Shown in pieces: positions 11,356 to 26,803 of a stretch of 64,000 nt of DNA; position 1 is the first letter of the stretch, and each line of letters opens with the position of its first letter. Source of the DNA: Leptospirales bacterium. GTDB taxonomy: Bacteria; Spirochaetota; Leptospiria; Leptospirales; Leptonemataceae. Under the pieces are notes generated by a model. That model saw nothing but the letters and a program-made list of their open reading frames with translations, was not told where the DNA came from and made no database searches. The DNA is taken from the NCBI GenBank assembly GCA_016788865.1, contig JAEUSB010000040.1:1-64000 (forward strand), read 5' to 3'. Both the position numbers and the translations under genes were made by a program.

Positions 11356-12257
11356 CTCTCCTCGAACGCCTGATGGCGATGGTCGAACGTATTCGGGCCG
11401 TCAATGATGAGGGGAAGCGGACCTCATTCCCCCAATCCGAGACAATTTACAGAAAGACGTTAAACGACCTTGTGGAGAACGAGGAGAAGATGCGCTATTA
11501 CTTACGCATGCTCGCGGAGGCGCATTACATTTTCATTATTCGCCTGGTCGAACCAGATGATCGCTTGTTGATTCACGGACTGGAAACGTACGTGGTCTCA
11601 GATATTCCCATCCTGATGAAGCTCAAAGAGGTCGCTTACTCGGAACTTGAGCTAGCTTATGAGGGCCAGTACTACAAACGCAAGCAAGCAACACAGGTTG
11701 TACGTGAAATGATCGGAACTGCACGGCAGTTCAACAATACTCCGCTGGGTAAATCACTGAACCTGGCGATGATGCTGCAACAATTTGAACAATTCATGGC
11801 CACGCGCTTTGTCGAATTTTCCGATACCTGGAAGAGCGAAAAACTACGCGAGCTGATTCCGGAGATCCTTAAGGAAGTTCAACCAATTCGCGACCAGAGC
11901 GATGTCTCAACGCAACCGCGACGCGCTGTCGACTCGGAGCACTTGACGAAGATCGAAGAGATGGATCGGTCCGGAAAATGGGGCGAGGCTGTACAGAAGT
12001 TTGGTGTTGAATTTCTTGTTCGTGTCCACTTGAGGAAATATGAATTCGCTCGAGTGAAGCAGCTGATCAAGCAGCATAAAATAGCAACGGAGAAGGATCT
12101 GCGTTTTATCCGGGATTCCTTGCGTGTAATGGAAGGAAGATTTGAGCAGGATCCGGAACTTAAGAATCATGCTGAAGCCCTCGTAGACTTACGTCGATTA
12201 GCCCAGCTAAGAATGAATCAAATCGTTTTGGCCCGCAAAGAAGCCGGCCTTAATTGA
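11352..12257 (+). CDS. Conserved-looking cytoplasmic protein of unknown function
   Basis: 301 residues from a GTG that overlaps the kdsB stop (GTGA), so it is probably coupled to kdsB. It is helix-rich and highly charged, with no signal peptide, membrane segment or Cys motif. The N-terminal ~170 residues form long predicted helices (MVERIRAVNDEGKR, YYLRMLAEAHYIF). A linker at ~175-195 leads to a second helical domain (EFLVRVHLRKYEFARVKQL). I do not recognise the family. Confidence 0.75.
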   Translation: MTLLERLMAMVERIRAVNDEGKRTSFPQSETIYRKTLNDLVENEEKMRYYLRMLAEAHYIFIIRLVEPDDRLLIHGLETYVVSDIPILMKLKEVAYSELELAYEGQYYKRKQATQVVREMIGTARQFNNTPLGKSLNLAMMLQQFEQFMATRFVEFSDTWKSEKLRELIPEILKEVQPIRDQSDVSTQPRRAVDSEHLTKIEEMDRSGKWGEAVQKFGVEFLVRVHLRKYEFARVKQLIKQHKIATEKDLRFIRDSLRVMEGRFEQDPELKNHAEALVDLRRLAQLRMNQIVLARKEAGLN

Positions 12258-12282
12258 CTCCGGCGGTCACGCCGTTTGTTGG

Positions 12283-12375
12283 CCTGCGGACCCGGTGTGC
12301 ACATCGCCCTTCGGCGCGGCGTCCCGAGCCTCGGGCCGCGGTGAAGCCGCTCGACGCGTACACCGCGGCCGCAGG
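12283..12375 (+). repeat. 90-bp hairpin repeat, copy D
   Basis: The ends are CCTGCGGACCCGGTGTGC and GTACACCGCGGCCGCAGG, which pair at 15 of 18 positions plus one G-T. The core contains CCCGAGCCTCGGGCCG, shared with copy B on its opposite strand, and GCCGCTCGACGC, close to the core of copy C. GC content is higher than in neighbouring genes. It overlaps the 3' end of the propeller remnant frame. Copies D and C read in this orientation; A and B are inverted. Confidence 0.75.
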
Positions 12376-12381
12376 AGAAAT

Positions 12382-12501
12382 CTGCGTTGCCTTGTCGCAA
12401 CCCTGGATGTCGGCGAACGGGGCCAGGGTTGGTCGGTGCTTGCAACGCAGGCGCGAATCTGGTCTCCCATCAAGTAACTTCCCGCAAAGCGTGGGAGACC
12501 A
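12382..12501. repeat. Nested and tandem hairpins beside repeat D
   Basis: CTGCGTTGC at 12382 pairs with GCAACGCAG at 12442. Inside it AACCCTGG (12399) pairs with CCAGGGTT (12423). Directly after, TGGTCTCCCA (12460) pairs with TGGGAGACCA (12492). Three perfect inverted repeats within 120 bp make a densely structured stretch between repeat D and the propeller remnant. I cannot tell whether this is a degenerate extra repeat copy or a structured RNA. Confidence 0.6.
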
Positions 12502-13209
12502 TCCCCATCGGTTCTAAACACATGCGTCTCTGAATTGGGACCTGTGAACTCATTTACGAACAGAAACCGCCCCGACATATCGCGACACATCGAGAAAGAG
12601 ATTGCGCCGCCGAGCATGGGACTGGTCTGATCGATCAATGTCATCACGCCGCCGCTGGTAAGGCTGTATGTCTGCAGCATTGGAGCTGTGGTCACGACGT
12701 AGAAGTAGTTCTCGTTCGCACTCACGACTCCAATTGCGAATGGACCCCCGGTGGCTGTGCGTTGAATATTACTCAGGTTTCCAGCGCCGTCCTTACTCAT
12801 CGTCAGTACATCACCCGTTGATGTAGTTGCTACAAGGGGGCTACCTCCAAAAGGAAAACTGGCAGACGTTACTGTGTCTGTTCCGTTTATCAAAGTATTC
12901 CCGAGATCTGCCATTGCTCCTGTACCTGCGGTAACCGAATACTTCTGTATGCCTCCACCACTGGCCGGATCTCTCCCTGCATAGATGAAACTTCCATCCG
13001 GATGGAAAGCGGCGAATTGACTGTTGTTCCCGAGTACGGGGGCAAGCTTCACTCCTGCAGCCGGAAATCCAACAGAATCACAGTTCAATCATGCTTATGA
13101 CCGTGTCGATGAGAAATCAGCTCAGCTATTTGCAGTTCTCTGTCACGCGAATGCTGTATAGGAGTTCCGTTCTTCCGAACCGGTAAGCGACAAGACACCG
13201 ACAGTATCT

Positions 13210-13298
13210 GAAAAGCGAAAGCGAGCCGTGCAGTGAGCTCGATACGAACGGCCCGAGCGTCGCAACAGCGAGCGAGGGGCAGGCCGCTTTCGCTTTTC
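13210..13298 (-). repeat. 90-bp hairpin repeat, copy A
   Basis: A perfect 14-bp terminal inverted repeat (GAAAAGCGAAAGCG / CGCTTTCGCTTTTC) encloses a core that begins AGCCGTGCAGTGAG, then GATACGAACGGCCCGAG. The core is nearly identical to copy B over the first ~40 bp. Read on the opposite strand it aligns with copy C (TCGCTC, GTTGCG, ACGCTC, ACTGCA). It lies just after the stop of the 13326-14456 gene. Confidence 0.85.
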
Positions 13299-13325
13299 GG
13301 CCGCCCGACGGTGCTCGCCGGAGCG

Positions 13326-14456
13326 CTATTTGGTTTCGGTTTTGCTCTCGCGCTTCCCAGGCATATACTTATACTCGATATTTATATTCACCTGGTCTTC
13401 AAAGATCTGATCACGAGAATCTGACAGATCGCGATGATATTGCTCCGGTACGCGAAGATCAAACACTGGATTCAGATTGGCCGGATAAATGTACGGATTG
13501 CTCTTATCAGCTTTCTTGTTTCCATCAGTAATGTTCTCGTCCGTCGACCAATCGCGTTCTTTACCAGCGACCTTTGGAAATACTGCAGGCTTTGGATTGT
13601 CGCCCTTGATGACTTCTGTTTTGCCGTACGGGCTCATGAGCGCATAGTTATCGTATGGATACTTGAGCTGGTAGATACGCTCGCCATTCAGCTTGGCCAG
13701 CCGTGCAATTCGAATACAGGTTAGATAGTATTCAATTCTGGCCCGACGATGGTGCGGCTCCAGGCGCTGGTTGGGGGCAAGGTTTGCGTCTACTGTGAGC
13801 GCGCGACGACGAGCTTCCCGCGCCAGGCCCAGCTGCTTGTATCCCTGCTCAACATTTCGTTCAATTTCATACTTGCTATATGCGTAATGCGTCTCGCGAG
13901 GATCGTAAGCCCGAGCATCGCGTGGGATTTCACGATTGCGTTTGAAGTCGCGCCGCTTATCGGAGTTGGGGCCAAAGTCGATCGAGATGTCCGTGGCAGA
14001 CATATCCGTAGGATTTGACAGGTCCTTTTTCTCAATTGCGTCGCGAAGCAGCATTTCTGTCCGGTCGAGGTACAGTTGGCTCAATCCTTCAAGGATTCGT
14101 TCCACGCGTGCCTGGCTGTCCAGAAAGCGATTGTAGGCATTCACATAGTTGCCTTCATACATGTACACCATTCCTTCCTGATAGATGCGCTTCACTTCGG
14201 TGAAGAGTTTGATGCGCTCGGGAAGGGCCGCTGGAGCCTGCGTAGCTGCTGGCTGGGTCCCCGGTTGTGTGTTGGCCGGGAGAGCCGCCACGCAATCCGG
14301 AAAGGGATCACATGGGAAATTATAGCTCATTGTGCGGATTTCGCGCAAATAACGAATCAGTTCGTTGCGCTTTTCCGACGCCTTTTCAGCCACGGACTCG
14401 CCGTGTGCTGCCAGGGGTAGACATAAGAGAGAAATAAGAGCCAGCCTGCGATACAT
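13326..14456 (-). CDS. Secreted/periplasmic protein of unknown function
   Basis: 376 residues starting at ATG 14456. Residues 1-20 are a signal peptide with cleavage near AHGES. A Pro/Ala/Thr-rich linker at ~60-80 is followed by a helical, TPR-like region (YQEGMVYMYEGNYVNAYNRF, ~93-112). Two further charged regions follow, with many Arg and Tyr. The C-terminus is basic. I do not recognise a named family. The TPR-like stretch suggests a periplasmic scaffold role (inference). It is divergent from the DUF2225 gene. Confidence 0.8.
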   Translation of the reverse strand: MYRRLALISLLCLPLAAHGESVAEKASEKRNELIRYLREIRTMSYNFPCDPFPDCVAALPANTQPGTQPAATQAPAALPERIKLFTEVKRIYQEGMVYMYEGNYVNAYNRFLDSQARVERILEGLSQLYLDRTEMLLRDAIEKKDLSNPTDMSATDISIDFGPNSDKRRDFKRNREIPRDARAYDPRETHYAYSKYEIERNVEQGYKQLGLAREARRRALTVDANLAPNQRLEPHHRRARIEYYLTCIRIARLAKLNGERIYQLKYPYDNYALMSPYGKTEVIKGDNPKPAVFPKVAGKERDWSTDENITDGNKKADKSNPYIYPANLNPVFDLRVPEQYHRDLSDSRDQIFEDQVNINIEYKYMPGKRESKTETK

Positions 14457-14573
14457 ATATGGGAGTCCTGCTTCAGTATGCTCCTATTCCTATCGGACTT
14501 TGCAAGTTCAAACCTGACGTTCGCTAAAATAAAATTTACACAGGATGGCCCGGGCCTCAGTGTGTAATTGCCC

Positions 14574-15482
14574 ATGCGGATCAAGCCTCCAGAAGTCAGC
14601 AAAGCCAAGGCCATTTCCTACAGGGTCAAGGACAAGAATACCTGCAAGGTTTGCGGGTTTGAGTTTAACCGGGAACAGCTCCATTCCGGTGGGGGGCGCC
14701 TGATCGCAGGAAAGCTGACCCAGGAACTTCGCCGGCTCTATGAAATGAGCAAGAAATACGGCAAAGTCTACCCTCTGGCATACTCCATCCTGACCTGCCC
14801 ACAATGCCTGTATTCAGCCTTCCCAAACGATTTTGCCTATCTTGCTCCGGATGAAATCGAAAAGATCAAGAAGGCCATGATCGATCGGCGCACTTCTATA
14901 GAGAAGATTGTTGGACCAGTAGACTATGCCGAGGATCGGAACCTGGTGACCGGTGCGGCCTCCTACTTGCTGGCAATCGATTGCTACCAGATGCGTGGGA
15001 TGGGCGTGGCCCCTACCCCGAAGAAGGCAATTTGCGCCCTCCGTGGTGCCTGGTTATTCCAGGACATGGCAGAGGAATTCCCAAAGTACGGATTTGAAAA
15101 GGTAAGCGAATATCTTTATCTGAAGGCCGTTAGCTGGTACATTCCAACGCTGGAAATCATGACAAACGGCCGGGAGCCCCATGATCAGTTTATCAACCTG
15201 CTCGGTCCGGATACTGATAACAATTGGGGCTTTGATGGTGTTATCTATATAAATGGGTACCTGACCAGGAAGTTCCTGGATCAACTTGCACCCACCAAAG
15301 AGAAGAAGCTCGAATTCCTGAATCGATGCAAGCAATACCTGGGCAAACTTTACGGGATGGGTCGCGCATCCAAGAGCAAACCTTCTATTATAATTGATAT
15401 GGCAAAGGAACTCTACGAAGAGTTGGCCAAGGAAATCGACGTGCTCAATGGAGTCCCCCAGACTGCTCAGCCGCCCGCGTGA
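14574..15482 (+). CDS. DUF2225-family protein with two CxxC pairs
   Basis: 302 residues from ATG 14574 (a TTG at 14568 is in frame). Two CxxC pairs, CKVCGFEF (~22-25) and CPQC (~76-79), probably bind zinc. The rest is helical, with YLLAIDCYQMRG and a long C-terminal helix. This matches the DUF2225 family found mainly in spirochaetes and Firmicutes, whose function is unknown. Its last 35 bp overlap truA, so co-expression is likely. Confidence 0.75.
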   Translation: MRIKPPEVSKAKAISYRVKDKNTCKVCGFEFNREQLHSGGGRLIAGKLTQELRRLYEMSKKYGKVYPLAYSILTCPQCLYSAFPNDFAYLAPDEIEKIKKAMIDRRTSIEKIVGPVDYAEDRNLVTGAASYLLAIDCYQMRGMGVAPTPKKAICALRGAWLFQDMAEEFPKYGFEKVSEYLYLKAVSWYIPTLEIMTNGREPHDQFINLLGPDTDNNWGFDGVIYINGYLTRKFLDQLAPTKEKKLEFLNRCKQYLGKLYGMGRASKSKPSIIIDMAKELYEELAKEIDVLNGVPQTAQPPA

Positions 15483-16359
15483 CCTTCCGTATAACACGGC
15501 GCTAGTTCTCCAGTACGATGGGACCAGGTATGCCGGGTTTCAACGTCAGGCAAATGGACTGAGCGTTCAGGAATTGCTCGAAGAAGCCGTCGCCATCGCA
15601 TTGCGCGAAAAGGTTCGCATTACTTGCTCGGGTCGCACAGATAGCGGCGTTCACGCAACAGGTCAGGTGGCCGGTTTTCGGAGTAGCATTCCCGTCACTG
15701 AGCCGCGACGATTCCTGTTTTCGTTAAATGGACTTCTCCCCCCTGATATTGCAATCAGGCGCGTTGTGCCTGTAGCGCGCGAATTCGATCCGCGTTTCTC
15801 ATGCCTGGGGCGTGAATATGAATTCTTGTATTGGATAGGTGGAAAGACTCCATACTGGGAGGGTAAAGCGTGGGTCAGGCGGTTTCCGTTTAATATTGAA
15901 GCGCTGAACTCTGAACTATTAGAAATCCTGGGCGAAAAGAATTTCGGGTCCCTGACTCCCGTGCGCTACATTGGTCAGGCAACGGTTCGATACCTTGAAA
16001 GCGCAACCCTTTCGGTTCGAAATGATCCATTCTCCGGTGATCCGTTCCTTGTTGTATTGAGTGTGCGAGCAAACGCATTCTTGCACAACATGATTCGAAT
16101 TCTTGCGGGCTGCATTGCCGCCCGTTCATTGAAGAAGATCGCGTCAATTGCTGATGTCGTTGCGGCAACCGATCGATACCGGGCAGGGCCCACTGCACCA
16201 GCACACGCTCTGTACTTCAAAAGAGCTCTCTATGCGCCCGGATCGGGTGACGGATTGGAGACCGTTGATTGGCCCGAGGACCATCCGCTATACAGGATTC
16301 ATGCTCGCAGAATCCAGCGGCATGCGGAATCTGGTCGCAGGTCCAGCAATGAACCTTGA
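15448..16359 (+). CDS. truA: tRNA pseudouridine synthase A
   Basis: 303 residues from ATG 15448. TruA makes pseudouridine at positions 38-40 of the tRNA anticodon stem. The catalytic Asp is in CSGRTDSGVHATGQV; earlier LQYDGTRYAGFQRQ is the family N-terminal block. The C-terminal FLHNMIRILAG and TAPAHALYF are also TruA signatures. The first ~10 residues overlap the preceding gene and are not conserved-looking, so the true start could be slightly later. The tail after ~270 is longer than usual. Confidence 0.92.
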   Translation: MESPRLLSRPRDLPYNTALVLQYDGTRYAGFQRQANGLSVQELLEEAVAIALREKVRITCSGRTDSGVHATGQVAGFRSSIPVTEPRRFLFSLNGLLPPDIAIRRVVPVAREFDPRFSCLGREYEFLYWIGGKTPYWEGKAWVRRFPFNIEALNSELLEILGEKNFGSLTPVRYIGQATVRYLESATLSVRNDPFSGDPFLVVLSVRANAFLHNMIRILAGCIAARSLKKIASIADVVAATDRYRAGPTAPAHALYFKRALYAPGSGDGLETVDWPEDHPLYRIHARRIQRHAESGRRSSNEP

Positions 16360-17011
16360 AATAACGGTGAATCGATTTTTTTCACGATCTGCTCTGGGCC
16401 TGGTGGCGTGTGCGGCGGTTTTTATGTCGCATCCGGTTATGGCTGAGGAAGCGCAATCGGTACACCGTATCAAACATGAATTCGGGCTCTGGATTGGAGC
16501 ATCCAATCCTGTCCCGGGAACTGAGCTAGATCAGGTCCTCGATTCAAACCTTGGCGGAGGGATCTTCTATCGATTCTCCTGGCCATGGATTTTCTACACC
16601 GAGTTCGGAACCTCATACGCAAACTATTTCTCGAGAGGGACGCAGAGTGCAACTGTCGTTCCGGTGTATGGGGCCCTCTCCTACCCCATTCAGTTGCCGA
16701 TTCGCATGCAGATGTTTGCGAAGCTCGGAGGCGGTAGCGCCTATGTGTTGATTCGTCCAAACAATCGTTCGGGATGGGAACCGCTCGGTTATGCGGGCCT
16801 TGAATTCTCAATTCTTGCTGGCAAGAAATTCCGGATTGGCTTGCGACTTGATTACAATCTGGTTTATGAGAAGAACCGCAGCGAGCCGCAGCAACCTCTC
16901 CTACCTGTCACAACGGGGAGCACAGATCCCCGATACCAGAGAACTGCCTATTTTAAGAAACGAAATGGACACTTCTTTCATTTTGGACTCATGACATCGT
17001 TCTTGTTCTAA
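16349..17011 (+). CDS. Outer-membrane beta-barrel protein
   Basis: 220 residues. ATG 16349 overlaps the truA end by 11 bp and gives a signal peptide (core LGLVACAAVFMSH, cleavage after VMA). The mature chain alternates hydrophobic and polar residues in strands separated by Gly/Asn turns. It ends in HFGLMTSFLF, with a terminal Phe typical of Bam substrates. It is probably a small 8-10-strand barrel. No specific family is recognised. It is followed 12 bp later by a lipoprotein gene, likely in the same transcript. Confidence 0.75.
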   Translation: MNLEITVNRFFSRSALGLVACAAVFMSHPVMAEEAQSVHRIKHEFGLWIGASNPVPGTELDQVLDSNLGGGIFYRFSWPWIFYTEFGTSYANYFSRGTQSATVVPVYGALSYPIQLPIRMQMFAKLGGGSAYVLIRPNNRSGWEPLGYAGLEFSILAGKKFRIGLRLDYNLVYEKNRSEPQQPLLPVTTGSTDPRYQRTAYFKKRNGHFFHFGLMTSFLF

Positions 17012-17023
17012 CGGAAACAAACC

Positions 17024-18256
17024 ATGCGCAAATTGACTCTAGTCTTGATTGGTCTGATCTCCCTGGCATCATGCCGGAGTAAAGATGACGAACCATTGCT
17101 CTCAATGCTGCTTGATACAAACAGCAAAACTGTCGTAATCTTGAAAGGCACATACGCGTCTGATAGCCCACTTGCCATGAATGAAATCAACGGAAATCAA
17201 CTGTTCCGCGATGCGCAGGATACGTCGCTCGATGTAACCGGGCTGCCCGGCTATGCTGACTTGCCCATCTATCTTGATATTGGCGAAATTCGACTTTCAA
17301 CTCGCGATTATGGTACTGGCCTCTGGGGAATTGAAACTGCCAAGGACGCAAGAGCGTTCTGGGATATCATAGCTTCGGAGCGCCAGGTGTATTGCAGCCA
17401 GCCTTACTCGGCAAGCCTTGAAAACGACAGCTGCTATTCAACGGGTGGCCTGGTAAATTATCAGGAATTCATGAATGGCCGTGGAGCGCTCTATCCGTCT
17501 CGGGATGTTGGTCCCGGCGTCTACTTGCATGCGGGCGTATTCGTTAGAGCGGTTGCCCTCGGACATCATCGACTGGGCAACGTTGCCCAAAATGATACCT
17601 TTGACAACAACACAATATTCAACGCAGCAAATATCACAACAACAGTTCAATATGATCCGGATACCAATGATGCTTTGAAGCAACTCCTGGCACCGCAATG
17701 GTTCCCGCTACACTTTACTTCTGTGATGTCCAACATCACACCGAATTCAATGATCATGACGAACGATCGTACAACGCGAGTAGTAGAAATTCGCTTCAAC
17801 ATAAAAGAAAACTTAATGGTGCATGGAATCAGCGACACCAGCGGTTATCGGACAATCGTCGGATTTAGTGACTGGCGGAAAGGCCATGCCCAACAGCGTG
17901 ATCTGGGTGGCAACGTACTCATGCGTGCACGGGTTTACTATCCTGATTACGTAAATACACTCGTGATCACGGGCGGAACGCAGAACTCGCGTTACTATTA
18001 TGCAGTTGTGGACCCACTGGAAACGTTCATCGAAGATAACCTTCCCGTGGCTGCGACGCCGGTACGCAATGGAAATAACGTTATTCAGAATCTGATGGGC
18101 GGCGTTAACTATCTGCTGCAATGCAGGTATGATGCAAATAACGACGGGTATCCGGAAACGATTGTTGGCCCGGGAACAACATTTGGAGTCTTACCCGGTC
18201 CGGGATCGCTTACCGTTAGCTGTCCATGTGGTAGCAGCCCTAGCTCTGGTTGCTAG
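17024..18256 (+). CDS. Lipoprotein of unknown function
   Basis: 410 residues. The N-terminus MRKLTLVLIGLISLASC has a spirochaete-type lipobox with lipidated Cys17. The mature part is long and Asn/Tyr/Asp-rich, with few Lys, typical of surface or periplasmic beta proteins. It ends in CPCGSSPSSGC. No catalytic motif is evident. It lies directly after the outer-membrane barrel gene and overlaps the convergent thioesterase gene by 17 bp. Confidence 0.8.
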   Translation: MRKLTLVLIGLISLASCRSKDDEPLLSMLLDTNSKTVVILKGTYASDSPLAMNEINGNQLFRDAQDTSLDVTGLPGYADLPIYLDIGEIRLSTRDYGTGLWGIETAKDARAFWDIIASERQVYCSQPYSASLENDSCYSTGGLVNYQEFMNGRGALYPSRDVGPGVYLHAGVFVRAVALGHHRLGNVAQNDTFDNNTIFNAANITTTVQYDPDTNDALKQLLAPQWFPLHFTSVMSNITPNSMIMTNDRTTRVVEIRFNIKENLMVHGISDTSGYRTIVGFSDWRKGHAQQRDLGGNVLMRARVYYPDYVNTLVITGGTQNSRYYYAVVDPLETFIEDNLPVAATPVRNGNNVIQNLMGGVNYLLQCRYDANNDGYPETIVGPGTTFGVLPGPGSLTVSCPCGSSPSSGC

Positions 18257-18815
18257 GGATACTTTCCCTCAAGCGTCGGCGAATCTTCTGCGCTCGCTTT
18301 CGGTTTGCTTCCAGTATTAGGCGGTTCCGCTCGCTGTCTTCCGCCGAATAGCGATCCGCGAATAACTTCTGGGCCATTCGCTCCGGCAGCGCATACCAAC
18401 CCGCAGATGAACTTGCTAATAGCTCACCGGACGCAGAGTGAATGGAAGCGCGAGTATAAATTCTGCGCTTGCGGACTGCCGTCAGCCAGCATCGCACGGT
18501 GATGGGCTGGTTCAGCGGTGTGGCCTTGTGATACTTAATGTGCAGTTGTTGCGTCATCACCAGGTGGCCAACATGATAACAGAGCGTGCCTTGCGCTTCA
18601 TCCAGTAGGGCGGCAAGAACCCCTCCATGAGCATAGCCTGGTGCGCCTTCTTGAAATCTGTCGGGGATGTGATCGAAGCGGACTTCACCGCTGGTTTCGT
18701 CAAAGGGAAACTCAGCGTGCAGCCCCCTGGCATTGTCAATACCGCAGCCAAAGCAATTTGTGTGGTGCCAATCGCGCGCAGTCTGGCTTGGGCCAACAAT
18801 ACCTTTCATTTCCAT
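18240..18815 (-). CDS. PaaI-like hotdog thioesterase
   Basis: 191 residues. HTNCFGCGIDNARGLHAEF at the N-terminus and GYAHGGVLAALLDEAQGTL (~58-76) are the hotdog helix and active-site block of PaaI/4HBT-like acyl-CoA thioesterases. The strands LHIKYHKATPLNQPITVRC follow as expected. It probably hydrolyses acyl-CoA in the cytoplasm. The C-terminal ~40 residues are a basic extension (RKRAQKIRRRLRE) beyond the fold. The start ATG 18815 is followed by a second in-frame ATG two codons on. Confidence 0.8.
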   Translation of the reverse strand: MEMKGIVGPSQTARDWHHTNCFGCGIDNARGLHAEFPFDETSGEVRFDHIPDRFQEGAPGYAHGGVLAALLDEAQGTLCYHVGHLVMTQQLHIKYHKATPLNQPITVRCWLTAVRKRRIYTRASIHSASGELLASSSAGWYALPERMAQKLFADRYSAEDSERNRLILEANRKRAQKIRRRLRESIPSNQS

Positions 18816-18865
18816 AGACCAGAATTCAGAATAGACAGCCCAAACGCACCACTTCTTTTACTTAT

Positions 18866-19510
18866 GTGAACATTGAGATCACCAGCTTTCCAGTAGCCCC
18901 GCTCGGCTGTACCTGCTCGATCCTGAAAGACAAGATCACAGGCGAGACCATCGTAGTCGATCCAGGTGGAGAGGGTCCAAAGATCATTGCCCTTCTGGAG
19001 GAGAAAGGATGCAGAGTCCGCTACATCATCCACACCCATGCTCATTTTGACCACGTGCTGGGAACTCATGACGTGGCTAATCATTGCCGTTCCCGGAACC
19101 AGACACCTGATGTGAGACTACATCCGGGGGATCAATTTCTGTACAAGATGCTGGCCAAACAATGCGGATGGTTCGGTCTTCCTCCGGCTCAACCGATAGA
19201 AGTCATGGCGGATATGTCCGACAATGAGGAATTCAGCTTTGGAGGACACAAACTCACGGTGCTGCACACCCCAGGACACACGCCAGGGTCCTGTTCATTT
19301 CACCTCGCAAATGAAGGGATTCTGTTCAGCGGCGACACACTGTTTGCGGGCGGAATTGGCCGGACAGATTTACCCGGTGGGGACTATTCGCAAATAATGA
19401 CAAGCATCAAGGAACGGCTTTTGACGCTCGATGAGGGAACGACTGTCATTCCGGGCCACGGTGATTTCACGCGTATCTTCGAAGAGAAGCAGCTCAACCC
19501 ATTCTTGTAA
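18866..19510 (+). CDS. Metallo-beta-lactamase-fold hydrolase (glyoxalase II-like)
   Basis: 214 residues from GTG 18866. The dimetal motif THAHFDH (~52-58) is clear. It is followed by HTPGHTPGS (~134), FSGDTLF and GRTDLPGG, then the C-terminal VIPGHGDFT with the last His. This is the glyoxalase II/YcbL branch of the MBL fold, which hydrolyses thioesters such as S-lactoylglutathione; the exact substrate is unknown. The MBOAT gene starts 8 bp after its stop. Confidence 0.9.
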   Translation: MNIEITSFPVAPLGCTCSILKDKITGETIVVDPGGEGPKIIALLEEKGCRVRYIIHTHAHFDHVLGTHDVANHCRSRNQTPDVRLHPGDQFLYKMLAKQCGWFGLPPAQPIEVMADMSDNEEFSFGGHKLTVLHTPGHTPGSCSFHLANEGILFSGDTLFAGGIGRTDLPGGDYSQIMTSIKERLLTLDEGTTVIPGHGDFTRIFEEKQLNPFL

Positions 19511-19517
19511 ACATTCC

Positions 19518-20930
19518 GTGCTCTTTCACACCCTTGACTTTGCATTCTTCTTCGTGGCTGTGTATCTGGTTTACAGATACTTTCCGGAAGCACGAGCGCA
19601 CATACTGCTATTGGGCTCGCTGTTCTTCTATGGATACTGGAATCCGCGCATCCTGGCATTGCTGTTCGCGACCGTAGGAATTAACTACTTCTGTGCTCTC
19701 TGGATTGAAACGGCCGCTAACTCGCGCAGCAGAAAGCTGGCCCTCGCCCTGGCATTGTTGGCTAACTTTAGTTTGTTGGGTGTTTTCAAGTACTACGGCT
19801 TCTTTGTAGAGAGTCTCACTCTACTCCTGAATCAATTTAACCTGCGTCCAGGTTTGCCCGTACTCGAAATTCTTTTGCCTGCCGGAATCAGTTTCTACAC
19901 GTTCGAGTTAACGTCGTATACGGTAGACGTTTATCGCGGAATGAAAGCAGAGCGATCGTTTCCCCGGTTGTTGCTATTTGCGACCTTCTTCCCCAAGATG
20001 ATGGCTGGCCCTATTGCGCGAGCAGGACAATTGCTACCGCAGCTTGCTTCGCCGCAAATAAAACCGGGGGCTTTCATGGAAGGTTCAACGCTGGCGCTCC
20101 TTGGGCTCTTTAAGAAAGTTGTGATAGCAGACCAATTGGCTCTGACGGTGAACCGGCTTCTCGGAAATACCCATGCGCCTGCAACCCTGGCACAAGTTTC
20201 GTTTCGATCAGATCTCGATGCAGTGAGCCTGATTCTTGCCGGTTCGTTCTTCGCGGTTCAGATCTATGCTGACTTTTCCGGATACTCTGACATGGCACGG
20301 GGTATGTCACGAATGCTTGGAATCGAACTAGTCCGTAATTTTGAACATCCATTTTTGAGCTCCAATCCTGCAGAGTTCTGGCGCCGCTGGCATATCACAC
20401 TTGGTGCATTCTTGCGAGATTACGTTTACATCCCGCTGGGGGGAAGCCGGGTAAAAGCCTGGGTTCAGGCCAGGAACGTCATGATCGTCTGGGCGCTTGG
20501 TGGCCTCTGGCATGGTGCTTCCATTGGATACCTCGTATGGGGCATCTATTGTGGCGCACTGGTAGTACTGTACCAAATTCTGCGCCCCCTGTTGTCCCGC
20601 ACGGGTAAACCAGGAGCGAATACCGGCTGTCTCATAACCTTCTTAAGTTTTGGCCTCGGATTAATGATCTTCAGGATCGGAACACCGGGTGCTTTGCTTT
20701 CCGTTCTGGGAACCTGGCGACTCCCGGATTTCACACTGAATGACCTTTTTGCCTTGCTGCTCTGTTTCCCATTTTTCATTTCTCATGCAATTTCGGACGG
20801 ACGAGAAACGATTGAGCACCTCCAACGCTTGCCATGGCCAATCAAGGCCCTTATGGTAAATACTATGTTCTACATATTTTTATTCATTGGACGATTCCAG
20901 GGTGAAGAGTTTTTCTATTTTCGATTCTAA
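19518..20930 (+). CDS. MBOAT-family O-acyltransferase (AlgI/DltB-like)
   Basis: 470 residues from GTG 19518; upstream in-frame codons lie inside the previous gene. Multiple membrane helices are present. The MBOAT core is seen in QIYADFSGYSDMARG, FWRRWHITLGAFLRDYVYIPLGG and the catalytic His of LGGLWHGAS (~340). Such proteins move acetyl groups across the membrane onto extracellular polysaccharides. No AlgJ/AlgX-like partner lies beside it. A possible target is the polymer made by the 7292-10564 enzyme (inference only). Its TAA overlaps the pcm ATG by one base. Confidence 0.88.
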   Translation: MLFHTLDFAFFFVAVYLVYRYFPEARAHILLLGSLFFYGYWNPRILALLFATVGINYFCALWIETAANSRSRKLALALALLANFSLLGVFKYYGFFVESLTLLLNQFNLRPGLPVLEILLPAGISFYTFELTSYTVDVYRGMKAERSFPRLLLFATFFPKMMAGPIARAGQLLPQLASPQIKPGAFMEGSTLALLGLFKKVVIADQLALTVNRLLGNTHAPATLAQVSFRSDLDAVSLILAGSFFAVQIYADFSGYSDMARGMSRMLGIELVRNFEHPFLSSNPAEFWRRWHITLGAFLRDYVYIPLGGSRVKAWVQARNVMIVWALGGLWHGASIGYLVWGIYCGALVVLYQILRPLLSRTGKPGANTGCLITFLSFGLGLMIFRIGTPGALLSVLGTWRLPDFTLNDLFALLLCFPFFISHAISDGRETIEHLQRLPWPIKALMVNTMFYIFLFIGRFQGEEFFYFRF

Positions 20931-21559
20931 TGCAAACAGAAGAGGCCCTTGCAAGGGCAAGACATGCAATGGTTGCGGAGCAGATTGTAGCTCGAGGGAT
21001 TAAAGAGCCACGCTTGCTAGAGTGTCTTAGAACAATTCCTCGTCACAGGTTCATTGAGCCAGGCCTCTGGGCAGATGCCTATAGCGATCATCCCATTCCA
21101 ATTGGCTTCAACCAAACAATCTCCCAGCCTTACATCGTAGCGTTTATGACGGAGAAACTCAAGTTACACGCGGAGGATCGCGTCCTGGAAATTGGCACAG
21201 GCTGCGGGTATCAAACTGCCGTACTTGCTTCGCTGTCTCGTGAAGTTTCTACAATCGAAATTGTCCCTGAATTGCTGGCGCGAGCCCGCGCTGCTCTCCA
21301 ACAGCTTGGGATCCATAACGTTAGATTCCATTCCGGCAATGGTTCGTTGGGTTGGCCTGAAGGGGGTAAGTTCGACGCGATTCTTTGCGCTGCCGCACCA
21401 AAGGTTATCCCAGAAGCACTAACAGCTCAGCTTGCTGACGGTGGTCGCATGATTTTACCCGTTGGCGAAGAATCGCAAAGGCTAATCTACATTGAATCGG
21501 TGGGCGGCAAACAGACTTCGCGGGTTCTATTGCCTGTTAGATTTGTGCCCATGATTTGA
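20930..21559 (+). CDS. pcm: Protein-L-isoaspartate O-methyltransferase
   Basis: 209 residues. It repairs isoaspartyl residues in damaged proteins using SAM. Evidence: PRHRFIEP, YSDHPIPIGFNQTISQPYIVAFM, SAM-binding VLEIGTGCGYQTAVL (~84-98), and the post motifs HSGNGSLGWPE and FDAILCAAAP. The length is usual for PCMT. It overlaps the MBOAT stop by one base (TAATG), so translation may be coupled. Confidence 0.93.
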   Translation: MQTEEALARARHAMVAEQIVARGIKEPRLLECLRTIPRHRFIEPGLWADAYSDHPIPIGFNQTISQPYIVAFMTEKLKLHAEDRVLEIGTGCGYQTAVLASLSREVSTIEIVPELLARARAALQQLGIHNVRFHSGNGSLGWPEGGKFDAILCAAAPKVIPEALTAQLADGGRMILPVGEESQRLIYIESVGGKQTSRVLLPVRFVPMI

Positions 21560-21620
21560 ACGCGAACTTCAAACCGGGCGATTACGTATAACGGGTTTGA
21601 CTTATGCGAATTCAAACCCA

Positions 21621-22547
21621 ATGTACGTCATGCGGTTCTCGATCATCGCTTTCTTGTTGGTTTGGACCTCTGGGTTGAGTGCAGAAATAATTTTCCTGCG
21701 CGACGGATCGCAGGTTGAAGGAACCATTTATGCGCAAAACGATCAATTCATTGATTTGAGAACCAAGAGTGGAAATCGCAGAATTCAGAAAACCCAGGTC
21801 CGGCGAATTGCCTACAATACTGAGCAGATAAAGCGCGAAGAGGAGGCCAGGGCAAAAGCGCGCCGTGAAGCCACGATCAAGGAAATGCAGCGACTTGCCA
21901 GGTTGCGTGCGCAGGAAGAAGAGGCAAAGCGATCTCAAGACATTGCGAGACAAAACCAGATCTCACGCGAACGCGCGGAGGCCGCTCGCCAGATCCGCGA
22001 AAAGGTAGAGCGCAAGGAGCTGGATAAACCTGACGAACCGATTGGGTTTCTTGATTTTGCGTGGAGATCCGCATTGGTTCCAGGTTGGGGACACTTCGCG
22101 ATTGACCGGCCCATTGTGGGTGGGATCTACATGGGGGCATCAGCTGCGGCACTCTACACCGTCTACGATGCAAGAAAAGGCGCCCTGGCCGCCAGGAAGA
22201 AGAATACCGATGAGGTATTGCTCAACACTCTCTATTCGATTCAACCCGGAGATGTTCCACTCGCCGGCCGCATTGCCTTCGGAACGGAAACAAATCGCCG
22301 CGCGCTTGTGACGTATCAAAACAAGATCAATCGATATAATTATTCCCTGGGCCTCCTGGCTGGCGTTTATGGCGTCCAGCTACTCCACATTATTTTCAAC
22401 GGATTGGCATGGGAAAAGGGCGCTGTCGTTCAGGGTCCGGTTATTCTTGAATTGAGCGTGGCACAGCAAATCGATTCGCAGGCAAGTTATCGGAACATTT
22501 CCAGAGGTGATATTCGCGTGAATACGGGCTTGAGCTTTAGATTCTGA
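21621..22547 (+). CDS. Exported membrane protein with coiled coil, unknown function
   Basis: About 308 residues. A signal peptide (MRFSIIAFLLVWTSGLSA from the second ATG at 21630) is followed by a short beta domain (IIFLRDGSQVEGTIY). Next is a strongly charged coiled coil, ~65-140, rich in E, R, K, A and Q. A hydrophobic part (WRSALVPGWGHF, then IYMGASAAALYTVY) resembles DUF5683-type membrane segments. The end INTGLSF-like RF suggests envelope association. Function is unknown. Confidence 0.7.
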   Translation: MYVMRFSIIAFLLVWTSGLSAEIIFLRDGSQVEGTIYAQNDQFIDLRTKSGNRRIQKTQVRRIAYNTEQIKREEEARAKARREATIKEMQRLARLRAQEEEAKRSQDIARQNQISRERAEAARQIREKVERKELDKPDEPIGFLDFAWRSALVPGWGHFAIDRPIVGGIYMGASAAALYTVYDARKGALAARKKNTDEVLLNTLYSIQPGDVPLAGRIAFGTETNRRALVTYQNKINRYNYSLGLLAGVYGVQLLHIIFNGLAWEKGAVVQGPVILELSVAQQIDSQASYRNISRGDIRVNTGLSFRF

Positions 22548-22616
22548 AAGCCTCTTCGCGCGGACCTTCAAGCTATCATTTCCTTCTGATGATCAAAAAA
22601 CCCTTGAAGGGTTCCG

Positions 22617-23864
22617 ATGCTATGTCTCAATAGCGTCATGGCCCTCCCCCCAATTGACTTTACCCGTACCATCGTCGACTTTTGTGGCAAGGCCACGGTG
22701 GGAACTCTCTCCACAATTCGAGATGTCTTAAGCGGGTCCCTCGGCAGCGCAGCCGATCAAATGGGGCAGCTTACTGACAAGCCTCTGGTCAAGTTTACAG
22801 AAATCCAGGGCACTTTCCGAAAGGCCGCAGAGAACTTGAGCACGGCCAATGATGTCACATCCTTTGGTATGGCTACGGCCATTCAAGCCGTGTCTGAGGC
22901 TTTCGACAAAGCAGGCGAGGCGCTCAACATCGCGAACGAGTTTACTCACCAAAACTTGTTTGAGAATGTTCAGGTAGGGAGCGTAACCGGAACCTCTTTT
23001 GATAGCTTCCTGCGCACGGAGATTCGTGCATCCTATCGCCTTGATGGAAGAGACGTAAGCGCCTCGGAAATCTATCAGGCCTTCAAGGCTTCTGGAAAGA
23101 CTCAGGCCGTTGTGATGATTCCTGGTTTGTTTTGTGATGAGACAATCTGGACCACGGGAGATGATTCGATTATTTCTCGATTCGACAACCTTGGAATCTA
23201 CGGGATAACAATTCGCCTGCATCCGGGATTGCCCATCGCGGAAAACGGTCGCAACCTACTTCGGCTGCTGGGAGAACTCTTTGATTGCGGAGAAATAACG
23301 CCTAACGTCATTGCCTATAGCAACGGCGGATTGATTTTTCGGAGCTGTCTGTACTATGCTGGCATTCAGAAGAAACCCTGGGCCCGTTTGTTTCGAAAAT
23401 GCTTAATTATCAGCCCTCCCGACGGGGGCTCCTATATTGAGAAGATTGGCTTCTGGCTGGGCCTTGCACTCAAATCGATCCCGGTTCTCGGACTGCAAAT
23501 GCTCGGTTGGATTGGTCACATGCGCAGCGAGGCAATGAAGGATCTATCACACGGCATCATTCGCGAGGAGGATAGAAAGAGCCTGAGCCAGGTTCATCGT
23601 TACGGAGCGGATCTCTACTATGGGGAGTTGGACGAGGTAGACGCTTATCTGGCCTACAGTTTGATCTCGGAAAGCAATGATCCGGTAAAGACTTGGCTGG
23701 GCGACGGCGTCTGTGAGAAACGGAGTCTCGAATATTTGCGCGAAAGCGTTTACATGAAAAAGCCAAATCCAGAATCACGAATTCGCGTCCTTCCCGGGAA
23801 GTCCCACTTTCAGATACTGGGAACTGACGGGATCCGAAAATTCATCGAAGAAGTCTTCGTTTGA
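22617..23864 (+). CDS. Alpha/beta hydrolase-like protein with helical N-domain
   Basis: 415 residues. The N-terminal ~130 residues are helical (TVGTLSTIRDVLSGSLGS and similar). The hydrolase part starts at VVMIPGLFCDETIW. The nucleophile elbow is IAYSNGGLI (~239-247), an S-N-G-G variant of GXSXG with Ala at the first position. The end GKSHFQILG supplies a plausible catalytic His. I chose ATG 22617 because GAAGGG sits 5 bp upstream; ATG 22638 is an alternative. The SD lies inside a small hairpin (AACCCTTGAAGGGTT). Confidence 0.72.
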   Translation: MLCLNSVMALPPIDFTRTIVDFCGKATVGTLSTIRDVLSGSLGSAADQMGQLTDKPLVKFTEIQGTFRKAAENLSTANDVTSFGMATAIQAVSEAFDKAGEALNIANEFTHQNLFENVQVGSVTGTSFDSFLRTEIRASYRLDGRDVSASEIYQAFKASGKTQAVVMIPGLFCDETIWTTGDDSIISRFDNLGIYGITIRLHPGLPIAENGRNLLRLLGELFDCGEITPNVIAYSNGGLIFRSCLYYAGIQKKPWARLFRKCLIISPPDGGSYIEKIGFWLGLALKSIPVLGLQMLGWIGHMRSEAMKDLSHGIIREEDRKSLSQVHRYGADLYYGELDEVDAYLAYSLISESNDPVKTWLGDGVCEKRSLEYLRESVYMKKPNPESRIRVLPGKSHFQILGTDGIRKFIEEVFV

Positions 23865-23882
23865 ACCACGCCCGACACCTGA

Positions 23883-24707
23883 ATGCAGAAAATACGCCAG
23901 AAAGAAAAACCGGCATTCGGCCTTCTACTCAAACAGTGGCGCAATCTGCGCGGCAAAAGCCAGCTTGACCTGGCCCTTGACGCTTCCGTTTCAGCCCGAC
24001 ACATAAGCTTTATCGAATCCGGCCGATCGACTCCAAGCAAGGAAATGGTTGTTACTCTCGCAACGGCATTGAACGTTCCACTGCGTGAACAGAACGTATT
24101 ATTGACGTCGGCGGGGTTTGCACCCGTGTATCATGAGTCCGAATTCCAGTCAGAAAGTTTTCTTGAGTCAAGACGCGTTCTAGAATGGATTCTGAAGAAA
24201 CACGAACCTTACCCGGCGGTGTTACTGAACCGCTGCTGGGATATCATTGCTGCAAACGAGGCCGCGCAACGCTTCTTCAGATTTCTTCTCGCGAACGCGG
24301 CTGCCGACTCCGCGGACGCCGGAAACGTCCTTCGCGTAATGTTCAAATCCAATCTTGCGCGCAAATACGTAAAAAATTGGCCCAGCGTCGCCGCGGCATT
24401 AATTGCGCGGACCTACCGCGAAATGCTGGGCGGGATCCACGATCGTGGTGCGCAACAGGTTCTCCTCGAGGTCCTCGCCTACCCGGATGTCCCGGCACAA
24501 ATGCGCACTCCCGATCTTTCTCAGCCGCTCACCCCATTCGTTCCAATCTTGTTCGAAAAGGACGGACAGGCCTTTACGTTCTCCTCATTGATTACGACGC
24601 TTGGTACCCCACAGGATATCACTCTGCAGGAACTGCGCATTGAATGCTTCTACCCAATGAACGAAATCACTGAGAAGAACATGCAGTTACTGCAGAATGA
24701 TTCCTGA
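23883..24707 (+). CDS. XRE-family regulator with MmyB-like ligand-binding domain
   Basis: 274 residues. The N-terminal helix-turn-helix is at ~12-68 (LLLKQWRNLRGKSQLDLAL, then SARHISFIESGRSTPS). The C-terminal domain from ~95 (EWILKKHEPYPAVLLNRCWDI) matches the PAS-like MmyB domain that binds fatty acids or similar ligands in actinobacterial homologues. It is convergent with the AhpD-like gene, 24 bp between stops; these regulators often sit beside the oxidoreductase they control (inference). Confidence 0.88.
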   Translation: MQKIRQKEKPAFGLLLKQWRNLRGKSQLDLALDASVSARHISFIESGRSTPSKEMVVTLATALNVPLREQNVLLTSAGFAPVYHESEFQSESFLESRRVLEWILKKHEPYPAVLLNRCWDIIAANEAAQRFFRFLLANAAADSADAGNVLRVMFKSNLARKYVKNWPSVAAALIARTYREMLGGIHDRGAQQVLLEVLAYPDVPAQMRTPDLSQPLTPFVPILFEKDGQAFTFSSLITTLGTPQDITLQELRIECFYPMNEITEKNMQLLQNDS

Positions 24708-24731
24708 TGAGGCAACATCGTTAGACGACAA

Positions 24732-25286
24732 TCAGTAGACTGCCAGGAATTTTTGACTCTCCAGCATGGAATCAAGCGGTGGTCGGCCTAGATGCTCCGT
24801 GTAGTTTGCCATTGTTGAAAAGGCAATCCCAACGATGACCTCCAGCGCCTGGGCTTTTGTGAAGCCTGCGCTCAAGAACTCCTCGGTTTCCTTGTCCGAC
24901 ACTCTACCTCTTGCTTCGATCATCGCCTGGGTGAATTTGCTCAAAGCGCGGAATCTGGGTTCTGTTGGCAGTCTACCGTCACGCAGTGCCTCAACCGTTT
25001 CCGGCGTCACGCCTGCCTTGATTGCAAAAACAGAATGAAATGAAACGCACCACTCACAGCGATTGGCCATTGCATTTGCAAGCGAAAGCACCTGGGTATC
25101 AGCTTCGCTGAACGTTCCCCCCAGATAGATTGAACGAAGTCCAAAGAATCCCTTAACCAGACTGGGTGATTCAGCCATTGCAGCCGCCAGATTTGGGATT
25201 CCACCCAGATTCTGTCGAACGGTCGTCAGGGTTTCCCGCGACCCGGCTGGCGCCGATTCGATTGTGTGAACTGAAAATTTAACCAT
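24732..25286 (-). CDS. Carboxymuconolactone decarboxylase/AhpD-like protein
   Basis: 184 residues from ATG 25286, preceded by GGAG. The redox motif CEWCVSFHS (C77, C80, H84) matches the AhpD-type C-x2-C-x3-H site. Flanking helices (LSLANAMANR, FTKAQALEVIVGIAFSTMANY) fit the fold. It probably acts as a peroxidase-linked thiol reductant in the cytoplasm. An upstream in-frame codon at 25394 would add 36 residues of poor quality. It is convergent with the XRE regulator. Confidence 0.85.
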   Translation of the reverse strand: MVKFSVHTIESAPAGSRETLTTVRQNLGGIPNLAAAMAESPSLVKGFFGLRSIYLGGTFSEADTQVLSLANAMANRCEWCVSFHSVFAIKAGVTPETVEALRDGRLPTEPRFRALSKFTQAMIEARGRVSDKETEEFLSAGFTKAQALEVIVGIAFSTMANYTEHLGRPPLDSMLESQKFLAVY

Positions 25287-25436
25287 CTTGTTTTCTCCTG
25301 TGCTCACGGCACGTGATAAGAGTGCCAGATTTTCTGTTGGCTCGCAATTACCCGGGAGGTAAGTTTCATGATTTTTTCGTGAATCGGCTTGCAAAAATCA
25401 ATTGAAACCACAAACGATTGAACTACTGATCCCGCT

Positions 25437-25778
25437 ATGGCAGATAAGACACTATTTAGTAAGATCATTGATCGTGAAATTCCGGCAAACATTGTCTACG
25501 AGGATGAACTTTGCCTGGCCTTCCACGATATCAATCCGCAGGCGCCCGTGCATGTTCTATTAATCCCAAAACGACCTATCGTAAAACTTTCAGAAGCGGC
25601 GTCAGGCGATCAGCCTTTGCTGGGATATTTAATGCTCAAGGCAGGTGAAGTTGCAAAGAAGTTGGGACTAAAGTCGTTTCGAATCGTTTCAAACGACGGT
25701 GCTGATGCAGGCCAGACTGTATTCCATTTGCATTTTCATATATTGGGCGGACGCCCTCTCTCCTGGCCTCCAGGTTAA
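25437..25778 (+). CDS. HIT-family nucleotide hydrolase/transferase (HinT-like)
   Basis: 113 residues, the usual HinT length. FSKIIDREIPANIVYED, AFHDINPQAPVHVLLIPK and the histidine triad HLHFHILGG define the branch I HIT family, which hydrolyses AMP-lysine or other purine phosphoramidates. ATG 25437 fits the family N-terminus. It is divergent from the AhpD-like gene with ~150 bp between. Confidence 0.93.
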   Translation: MADKTLFSKIIDREIPANIVYEDELCLAFHDINPQAPVHVLLIPKRPIVKLSEAASGDQPLLGYLMLKAGEVAKKLGLKSFRIVSNDGADAGQTVFHLHFHILGGRPLSWPPG

Positions 25779-25810
25779 GCGCGAATTGCGGCCCGCGCCG
25801 AATCGTGCCT

Positions 25811-25901
25811 TGAAACACAGCCCACAGTCGTCGCCTTCGCTCCGCCGTTGCGGACGCTCAGGACGCGCCGTTGCGCTCGACGCACTGCAGACTGTGTTTC
25901 A
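25811..25901 (+). repeat. 90-bp hairpin repeat, copy C
   Basis: Terminal inverted repeat TGAAACACAG / CTGTGTTTCA (10 of 10). The inner stem continues at five of the next eight positions, ending in CAGT. The stem sequence is unrelated to those of A and B. The core (TCGCTCCGCCGTTGCGGACGCTC, read in two parts, then GCTCGACGCACTGCA) aligns with A read on its opposite strand and with D. Confidence 0.75.
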
Positions 25902-26068
25902 GGATAAATCCGCGCTGGTCTTCTCGCTTACGAACTTCGGAAAGAATCCGTGTATACCCTTTTGACAATGGCCGTTCGATAATTCCGCATAACGTTGCAA
26001 GAAGCCAGGTCGCTTCACGTCGCTCGATTCCGAAAGCCAGTCACGACAAGGCCTGCACGGCTATCTTC

Positions 26069-26161
26069 CGGAAAGCGAAAGCGAGCCGTGCAGTGAGTTG
26101 GATACGAACGGCCCGAGGCTCGGAACGACGCGCCGAGGGGCAGGCACGCTTTCGCTTTCCG
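26069..26161 (-). repeat. 90-bp hairpin repeat, copy B
   Basis: A perfect 15-bp terminal inverted repeat (CGGAAAGCGAAAGCG / CGCTTTCGCTTTCCG). The core shares AGCCGTGCAGTGAG and GATACGAACGGCCCGAG with copy A and GAGGGGCAGGC near the other end. The middle differs from A but matches copy D (CCGAGCCTCGGGCCG on the opposite strand). Confidence 0.85.
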
Positions 26162-26247
26162 ATCCAGGATTCCGAGCGGGGCCGGTCGCTCTCGGACGTC
26201 CTTGTCCTTCGCGACACCTGTGCATCCGTGCACAATACCAGAGTGAC

Positions 26248-26565: not shown

Positions 26566-26803
26566 TTTTCCTCCGGGCGGGGTTAATCGCCCCCACCACG
26601 TTTTGTTAGACATTTCTTTGCGTCCATTCGTTCATCAGGAAGAAAAATCCGAATCGAACCGGGTACGCAGAGTGCCACGATCCAAACAGGATGCGTACTT
26701 TTTAGGCACCTTTCCCGTTTCCTATAAGGGTACGTTTATTGCTATTCATGAGGGCAACTGCATTAGAATGCAGACAAAACACAATCAACCAGGAGTCTTT
26801 GAA

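What the first reader, a model, noticed from the sequence alone, without database searches (positions are those of the whole stretch)
12283..26161. A ~90-bp hairpin repeat with a conserved core and covarying ends, in two inverted pairs
Copies D (12283-12375), A (13210-13298), C (25811-25901) and B (26069-26161) are all 89-93 bp. Each has long terminal inverted repeats: 14/14 in A, 15/15 in B, 10/10 in C, 15/18 plus a G-T in D. Stem sequences differ (AAAGCGAAAGCG in A and B; TGAAACACAG in C; CCTGCGG..CGGTGT in D), yet cores align across copies: D with B over CCGAGCCTCGGGCCG, C with A over TCGCTC/GTTGCG/ACGCTC, C with D over GCTCGACGC. Paired ends changing together while the core stays is what selection on a folded DNA or RNA structure gives. 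Both pairs are oriented sense-first then inverted (D..A, C..B). I see no transposase. A mobile miniature element, a structured RNA or a recombination site are all open; I cannot assign it to a named family.
Basis: partly seen in the sequence, partly recalled or inferred. Interest (0 to 1): 0.78.

Follow-up and report, generated by a model that had tools for sequence, protein, structure and literature searches.

The report
Hairpin repeats docked on stop codons
A family of roughly 150-base hairpin repeats, mostly sitting directly after the stop codons of genes, is scattered through this spirochaete genome; its fold has been kept while its sequence changed, and it likely shapes how messenger RNAs end.

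Summary
The four hairpins belong to a dispersed family: 47 model matches in this genome, 39 in a same-genus lake spirochaete MAG, none at E<=0.01 in 27 other genomes of the order. The unit is about 130-155 bp, not 90. Its left foot lies at a stop codon: 48 of 78 copies within -10..20 nt, 26 of them at exactly 4 nt; right ends 2 of 78. Stem arms covary beyond shuffled and slid controls; so do the four closing pairs beside the stop. Core modules are mixed, not uniform. At 17 shared sites the element persists while its interior changes, partly by compensated changes; 14 of 17 other sites lack it in the relative. Y1 transposase and Rfam matches are absent; attC boxes (1 of 78) and U-tract terminators (7 of 78) are rare. 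G002 has a sister family with another core; G006, another genus, has a sequence-unrelated hairpin repeat that often starts at a stop codon. Best reading: a REP-like mRNA 3'-end hairpin. That mechanism is inferred; no RNA data were available.

The parts
   Evidence: model R1 98.3 bits; type
12255..12257 (+). TGA stop codon of the 301-aa ORF 11352-12257; the model start of D is the next base
13187..13323 (-). element A, whole unit (type A side arm, apical type 2)
   Evidence: model R1 109.6 bits; type
13326..13328 (-). TAG stop codon of the 376-aa ORF 13326-14456; foot of A lies 2 nt from it
25786..25927 (+). element C (type C side arm, apical type 2); absent behind the orthologous stop codon in G001
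   Evidence: model R1 80.8 bits; empty site
25776..25778 (+). TAA stop codon of the HIT-domain gene 25437-25778; model start of C is 7 nt away
26043..26185 (-). element B (type A side arm, apical type 1), without its outermost left end
   Evidence: model R1 117.1 bits; type
26238..26247 (-). left end of B (GTCACTCTGG) directly after the TAA stop 26248-26250 of the ORF 26248-26613
   Evidence: alignment with G001 L145
26186..26237 (-). module resembling the second hairpin kind, apparently inserted inside the left arm of B; absent from the G001 ortholog
   Evidence: by eye, not among the 13 nhmmer hits

Best explanation
These four hairpins belong to a dispersed family of roughly 150-bp palindromes whose foot mostly lies directly after gene stop codons, and they likely work as REP-like mRNA 3'-end structures that would block 3'-to-5' exonucleases and may slow the terminating ribosome. 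Shown: the family, its placement, the covarying stem and four-pair foot clamp, its persistence at shared sites with a changing interior, and its absence at other orthologous stop codons. Inferred: the hairpin forms in the mRNA of the upstream gene, transcription ends further downstream (probably by Rho, since few copies have a U-tract), exonucleases trim back to the hairpin, and it refolds beside the stop codon after each ribosome. Two genes facing each other can each carry one, so an intergenic region would then hold two 3' ends tail to tail. Also inferred: the family spread between stop codons by an unidentified route and exchanged core modules among copies.
For: Left foot within -10..20 nt of a stop of an ORF of 120 or more codons in 48 of 78 copies, right end 2 of 78; of the 48, 26 lie at exactly 4 nt and 47 at -1 to 7 nt, with TAA 26, TGA 13, TAG 9. 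Own stem arms pair better than arms swapped between copies (type A 12.8 against 7.2, type C 12.9 against 7.6; 0 of 20000 permutations reach the own mean; 42 of 78 copies could be parsed). Foot clamp: base pairs -1 to -4 covary in the 64 of 78 copies taken as clean (z 3.9, 4.4, 2.8, 2.9) and -5 and beyond do not. At 12 of the 17 shared sites, 23 pairs changed on both sides and stayed paired. The stop is the same codon in the relative at 14 of 15 comparable sites, so it is native (read by eye). Published precedent: REPs fewer than 16 nt from a stop lower translation (PMC12306157, passages); Rho-ended E. coli galM mRNA is trimmed to a stable 3' end at a stem-loop (PMC9927376, passages); Rho-mediated ends are common in the spirochaete Borrelia (PMC10319736, passages).
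Against: No RNA data. G-T and A-C departures in stems are of similar number (9 against 16; 23 against 21), whereas an RNA helix should tolerate G-U on its own strand. The predicted RNA fold is more stable on the strand opposite to the gene in 59 of 78 copies. 30 of 78 copies lack the stop placement by the measure; 4 by the measure, and a few more by eye, abut a start codon of a divergent gene instead. At 14 of 17 queried sites the relative does without the element, so those genes do not strictly need it.
Confidence: 0.42

Rival explanations
1. A non-autonomous mobile palindrome without host function, spread by an unknown recombinase that prefers gene ends; the arms stay complementary because template switching or gene conversion copies one arm onto the other.
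For: Presence/absence between species; mixed core modules; G-T no commoner than A-C in stems; matches only in this genus among 30 genomes of the order; an unrelated hairpin repeat in G006 with nearly identical copies.
Against: No Y1 transposase in G000 or the 21 other same-family genomes searched (other transposase kinds were not searched); right-end matches lead to no longer element (11 matches); direct repeats of 4 nt or more at the ends in 13 of 78 against 6 of 78 with swapped ends; 17 shared sites keep a model-recognised element although much of the spacer no longer aligns; a stop offset of exactly 4 nt in 26 of 48 is unusual for a random insert.
Confidence: 0.27
2. A bidirectional transcription terminator: the hairpin itself releases RNA polymerase, and element pairs replaced ordinary terminators between convergent genes.
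For: Three relative loci carry textbook intrinsic terminators where G000 has elements (L179, L181, L192); the right-hand neighbour is convergent in 48 of 78.
Against: U-tract terminators at 7 of 78 element loci against 73 of 586 random stretches and 6 of 22 relative loci (7 of 78 against 6 of 22 Fisher p 0.035; the 22 include L180, L186 and L200, which have a remnant or a neighbouring element); many G006 repeats are followed by a separate U-tract hairpin (by eye).
Confidence: 0.13
3. A DNA-level site: the palindrome extrudes as a cruciform or binds a protein between convergent genes, as BIME/REP clusters are said to do for gyrase (recalled, not looked up).
For: No strand preference in wobble pairs; 12 of 12 close opposite pairs tail-to-tail, 10 of 12 of mixed type A+C.
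Against: A DNA site has no obvious reason to keep its foot within a few bases of the stop codon.
Confidence: 0.11
4. A regulatory RNA read from the opposite strand; in copies that abut a start codon its end brings GGAG or AGAG upstream of the ATG.
For: Lower predicted energy on that strand in 59 of 78; G-A steps facing each other in the core on that strand (by eye); start-abutting orthologous pair L126/L154.
Against: Most copies face a stop codon of a gene on the other strand; no promoter was tested.
Confidence: 0.05
5. Integron attC sites.
For: Hairpin with structure kept more than sequence, right after a gene, mostly one orientation to it.
Against: RYYYAAC and GTTRRRY both present in 1 of 78; integron-integrase model over its cut-off in 0 of 22 genomes; one G000 candidate checked whole has 200 bits against 265; neighbouring genes at shared sites are syntenic.
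Confidence: 0.01

Closest known systems
REP / BIME sequences (GTAG and CGTC super-families, PMC3733652)
   Same: Dispersed palindromes downstream of genes, often in opposite-orientation pairs and between convergent genes; some supply or lie near stop codons (passages).
   Different: REPs are given as 20-40 bp with a GTAG or CGTC tag; here 130-154 bp in trimmed copies, tag in 3 or 5 of 78, no RAYT-type transposase found, a covarying stem whose sequence differs between copies, and foot pairs covarying beside the stop.
ERIC, NEMIS, RUP and other MITE-like bacterial repeats (recalled; MITEs in general are mentioned in PMC3733652 passages)
   Same: Short imperfect palindromes next to genes (recalled: about 100-200 bp).
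   Different: Only a short foot is inverted at the very ends, no clear target duplication, and the stem sequence differs between copies.
Intrinsic terminators
   Same: G+C-rich hairpin after a gene.
   Different: No U-tract in most copies, far longer, conserved core.
Integron attC sites
   Same: Structure kept over sequence, downstream of a gene.
   Different: No R boxes in 77 of 78, no integron integrase over cut-off, neighbours syntenic rather than a cassette array.

Membership tests
REP (GTAG/CGTC) | 20-40 bp palindrome | tested here: not met
   130-154 bp among the 43 trimmed copies (lengths)
REP (GTAG/CGTC) | unpaired GTAG or CGTC tag at one end | tested here: not met
   3 and 5 of 78
REP (GTAG/CGTC) | downstream of genes, inverted pairs | tested here: met
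REPIN/RAYT system | Y1_Tnp (RAYT-type) gene in the genome | tested here: not met
   0 matches to PF01797 in G000 and in the 21 other same-family genomes; 21 of 61 genomes match, all outside the family
MITE | target site duplication | tested here: inconclusive
   direct repeats of 4 nt or more in 13 of 78, swapped control 6 of 78
MITE | autonomous partner with the same ends | tested here: inconclusive
   right-end pattern with up to 3 mismatches: 11 places; 10 are right ends of model hits, the eleventh (C88:22664) a second partial element; one end only and only transposases of the Y1 kind were searched
intrinsic terminator | hairpin followed by a U-tract | tested here: not met
   7 of 78, background 73 of 586
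integron attC | RYYYAAC and GTTRRRY boxes | tested here: not met
   both in 1 of 78
integron attC | integron integrase in the genome | tested here: not met
   0 of 22 genomes over the cut-off of TIGR02249
known Rfam family | match to a covariance model | tested here: not met
   none at gathering score in the window; none at E<=0.5 in five element loci
structured RNA acting in the sense mRNA | compensatory base changes | tested here: met
structured RNA acting in the sense mRNA | G-U tolerated on one strand only | tested here: not met
   G-T against A-C on the gene strand: 9 against 16 and 23 against 21
structured RNA acting in the sense mRNA | transcript observed | not testable with these tools
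   no RNA-seq at hand

The most novel reading that the evidence does not exclude
Spirochaetes of this family use fast-evolving, stop-codon-docked hairpins as their own way of making mRNA 3' ends: selection keeps fold and placement but hardly the sequence, so core modules are swapped within a genus and an unrelated hairpin repeat has taken up the same post in another genus, in some places where relatives carry ordinary terminators.
Probability: 0.2. Interest if true: 0.8.

Novelty: new variant of a known kind. Interest (0 to 1): 0.58.

Why it matters
Repeats after genes are usually read as selfish DNA or passive REP debris. Here covariation between copies, compensated change at shared sites and a foot clamp that ends where the stop codon begins can be measured without experiments, so whether docking at a stop codon matters becomes testable. 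Three core types in one genus and an unrelated repeat with similar placement in another genus offer natural replicates for 3'-end formation in a poorly studied group of bacteria.

Tried and rejected
Rejected with tests: chance palindromes; RAYT-driven REPIN; attC; known Rfam family; U-tract terminator; stop-codon readthrough (the frame after the stop stays open for 50 or more codons in 27 of 48, the other frames in 23 and 23). One core pattern has no exact match in viral contigs. Led nowhere: the genome-wide pattern gave 7 loci of JAIOPQ01 and 3 single loci in unrelated bacteria, taken as chance and not examined; the empty-site comparison could not fix insertion boundaries because the sequence behind the stop does not align; no tree was built, so gain against loss rests on absence in both G001 and G002 at some sites. 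The gene-end palindrome scan is not specific: in the window its best score is not an element. Literature searches (listings only) showed no description of this family; most subscription journals are not held, so absence from print is not claimed. The original paper on REPs near stop codons was not found (0 papers); its result is taken from passages of PMC12306157. The start of the abstract of PMC3607928 in the listing says Treponema are the only spirochaetes found to carry integrons.

Selection effects: the 78 copies (44 G000, 34 G001) are model hits at E<=0.001 in the window and 60 fetched regions chosen because they held hits; three weak G001 places (C80, C95, C60) were not fetched. They include 17 orthologous pairs (one of them, L137/L155, by looser synteny) and are not independent. 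The comparison of compensated changes used 12 of the 17 pairs, chosen by hand, and set aside 27 unaligned pairs. The structure tested was derived from the same alignment, which favours it.
Full report
WHAT IS THERE. The window is contig C19 of a 4.88 Mb genome in 109 contigs, unnamed; its same-genus relative G001 matches the record JAIOPQ01, 'Spirochaetia bacterium', a lake MAG (identity inferred from equal contig lengths, for example 54581 and 22717). Copies A, C and D used as DNA queries find 28, 14 and 16 places in the genome at E<=1. A covariance model from 43 copies (R1) finds 47 matches in G000, 39 in G001 and 4 weak ones in G002 at E<=0.1 (150 candidates scored per genome), and at E<=0.01 43, 37 and 1, with 0 in the other 27 genomes of the order (at most 103 candidates scored per genome).

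PLACEMENT. For 78 copies (window plus 60 fetched regions, E<=0.001) the left end lies -10 to 20 nt from the stop of an ORF of at least 120 codons in 48; the right end does so in 2. In those 48, 26 offsets are exactly 4 nt and 47 fall between -1 and 7; all three stop codons occur. A cruder gene call gives 46 of 78 stops and 4 starts within 12 nt. Reading the flanks by eye, several of the others abut a start codon of a divergent gene (for example L126 and its ortholog L154). Opposite-orientation neighbours within 1 kb are tail-to-tail in 12 of 12, and 10 of 12 combine types A and C (p 0.02, or 0.06 if two orthologous pairs are merged): suggestive only.

STRUCTURE. In the MAFFT alignment, which was not fitted to a structure, 90.4% of cells pair; 139 cells carry a change on both sides against 55.9 +/- 7.1 when partners are shuffled and 19 to 36 when they are slid. 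The structure was derived from the same alignment, which favours it over the slides. Independently, each copy's own arms pair better on average than arms swapped between copies (42 of 78 parsed), though the own partner is strictly the best one in only 10 of 18 type-A and 8 of 24 type-C copies, since some copies share stems. The outermost pairs, between the bases following the stop codon and those following CTTGTCGC, covary at positions -1 to -4 in 64 clean copies and not from -5 on; at shifted registers two isolated columns also reach z 3.3 and 2.4. So the helix closes about where the stop codon ends. Departures of the G-T kind are no commoner than A-C, which does not single out one RNA strand; predicted energy favours the strand opposite to the gene in 59 of 78.

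HISTORY. Seventeen sites carry an element in both G000 and G001. Whole-element identity there is 0.45 to 0.79; non-orthologous pairs average 0.61; three of the 17 lie within roughly the top 6% of these. Window D and its ortholog differ by three compensated pairs, and over 12 such sites there are 199 unchanged, 23 doubly changed, 23 G-T, 21 A-C and 75 otherwise broken pairs, 27 unaligned pairs set aside, so turnover is fast and the evidence is not one-sided. Of 20 other G000 sites queried (of 27), 17 were found in G001: 14 without an element there, 3 with a remnant (partly by eye). In 14 of 15 comparable sites the stop codon is the same codon in the relative, so the element does not supply it. 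Window element C is one such case: the HIT-domain gene ends at the same codon in G001 with no C behind it. At some of these sites an ordinary terminator stands in a relative (L179, L181, L192).

BEYOND THESE TWO GENOMES. G002 carries a sister family with a third core, 12 DNA matches, with feet at stop codons in L219, L225 and L229 and, at L221, in a neighbouring copy. A scan of 309 gene ends in 400 kb of G006, another genus of the family, turned up a hairpin of unrelated sequence; it has 20 matches in that genome, the best eight 91-100% alike over 143-185 bp, and 1 short match in G002. Of 16 with their left end, 8 have the element's leading TAA or TAG as the in-frame stop of an ORF of 80 or more codons, and many are followed by a U-tract hairpin (by eye). 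In that family the stop may thus be part of the repeat, unlike here; whether its placement arose independently is not shown.

HOW IT LIKELY WORKS. The placement is that of the E. coli REPs reported to lower translation when fewer than 16 nt from a stop (PMC12306157, passages), and stem-loops are where exonucleases leave a stable 3' end after Rho termination in galM (PMC9927376, passages). I therefore infer a 3'-end hairpin that blocks exonucleases and may slow ribosomes. The inference is untested; a mobile element without function is the strongest rival, and both can be true in turn.

VERDICT. Real, structured, mostly stop-docked and found at this stringency only in this genus; a new variant of the repetitive extragenic palindrome kind that fails the REP membership test on length, tag and transposase.

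Noticed in passing
window 26186-26237; L122 2189-2241, L113 2098-2212, L159 2153-2206, L116 4497-4549 and others: A second, about 53-bp module with small hairpins bearing GGA in their loops (CCACAGGATGTGG and the like) sits inside or beside elements: 13 nhmmer hits in 61 regions. It recalls CsrA-type loops (recalled, untested).
   Followed up: partly
L235 13550-13730; L253-L273 (G006): An unrelated hairpin repeat in another genus, with several nearly identical copies, often begins with the gene's stop codon and is often followed by a U-tract hairpin.
   Followed up: partly
L219-L232 (G002): A sister family with a third core type, feet at stop codons in at least three copies.
   Followed up: partly
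L126, L154, L155, L161, L133, L120, L158: Copies whose foot abuts what looks like the start codon of a divergent gene, in some bringing GGAG or AGAG just upstream of the ATG (by eye).
   Followed up: partly
window 12399-13186: About 790 bp between D and A, with a weak lactonase-like ORF 12267-13088 (-) under Pfam's cut-off, where the orthologous elements in G001 lie 73 bp apart.
   Followed up: no
L278 2739-3782 (G000 C24): A tyrosine recombinase near a contig end, just under the cut-off of NF040815 (219.1 against 220 bits) and well under the integron-integrase model.
   Followed up: partly
L132 2071-2159, L116 4188-4274, L162 1981-2069: Copies with stem and core only, lacking both outer ends (model positions 33-121 or 33-123).
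   Followed up: no
right flank of elements: A loose motif like RACGGGTTYNGA follows the right end in 47 of 78 copies against 4 of 78 control positions.
   Followed up: partly
window, behind the minus-strand ORF 24732-25394: The highest palindrome score of the gene-end scan in the window (16.6) lies here and is not an element of this family.
   Followed up: no
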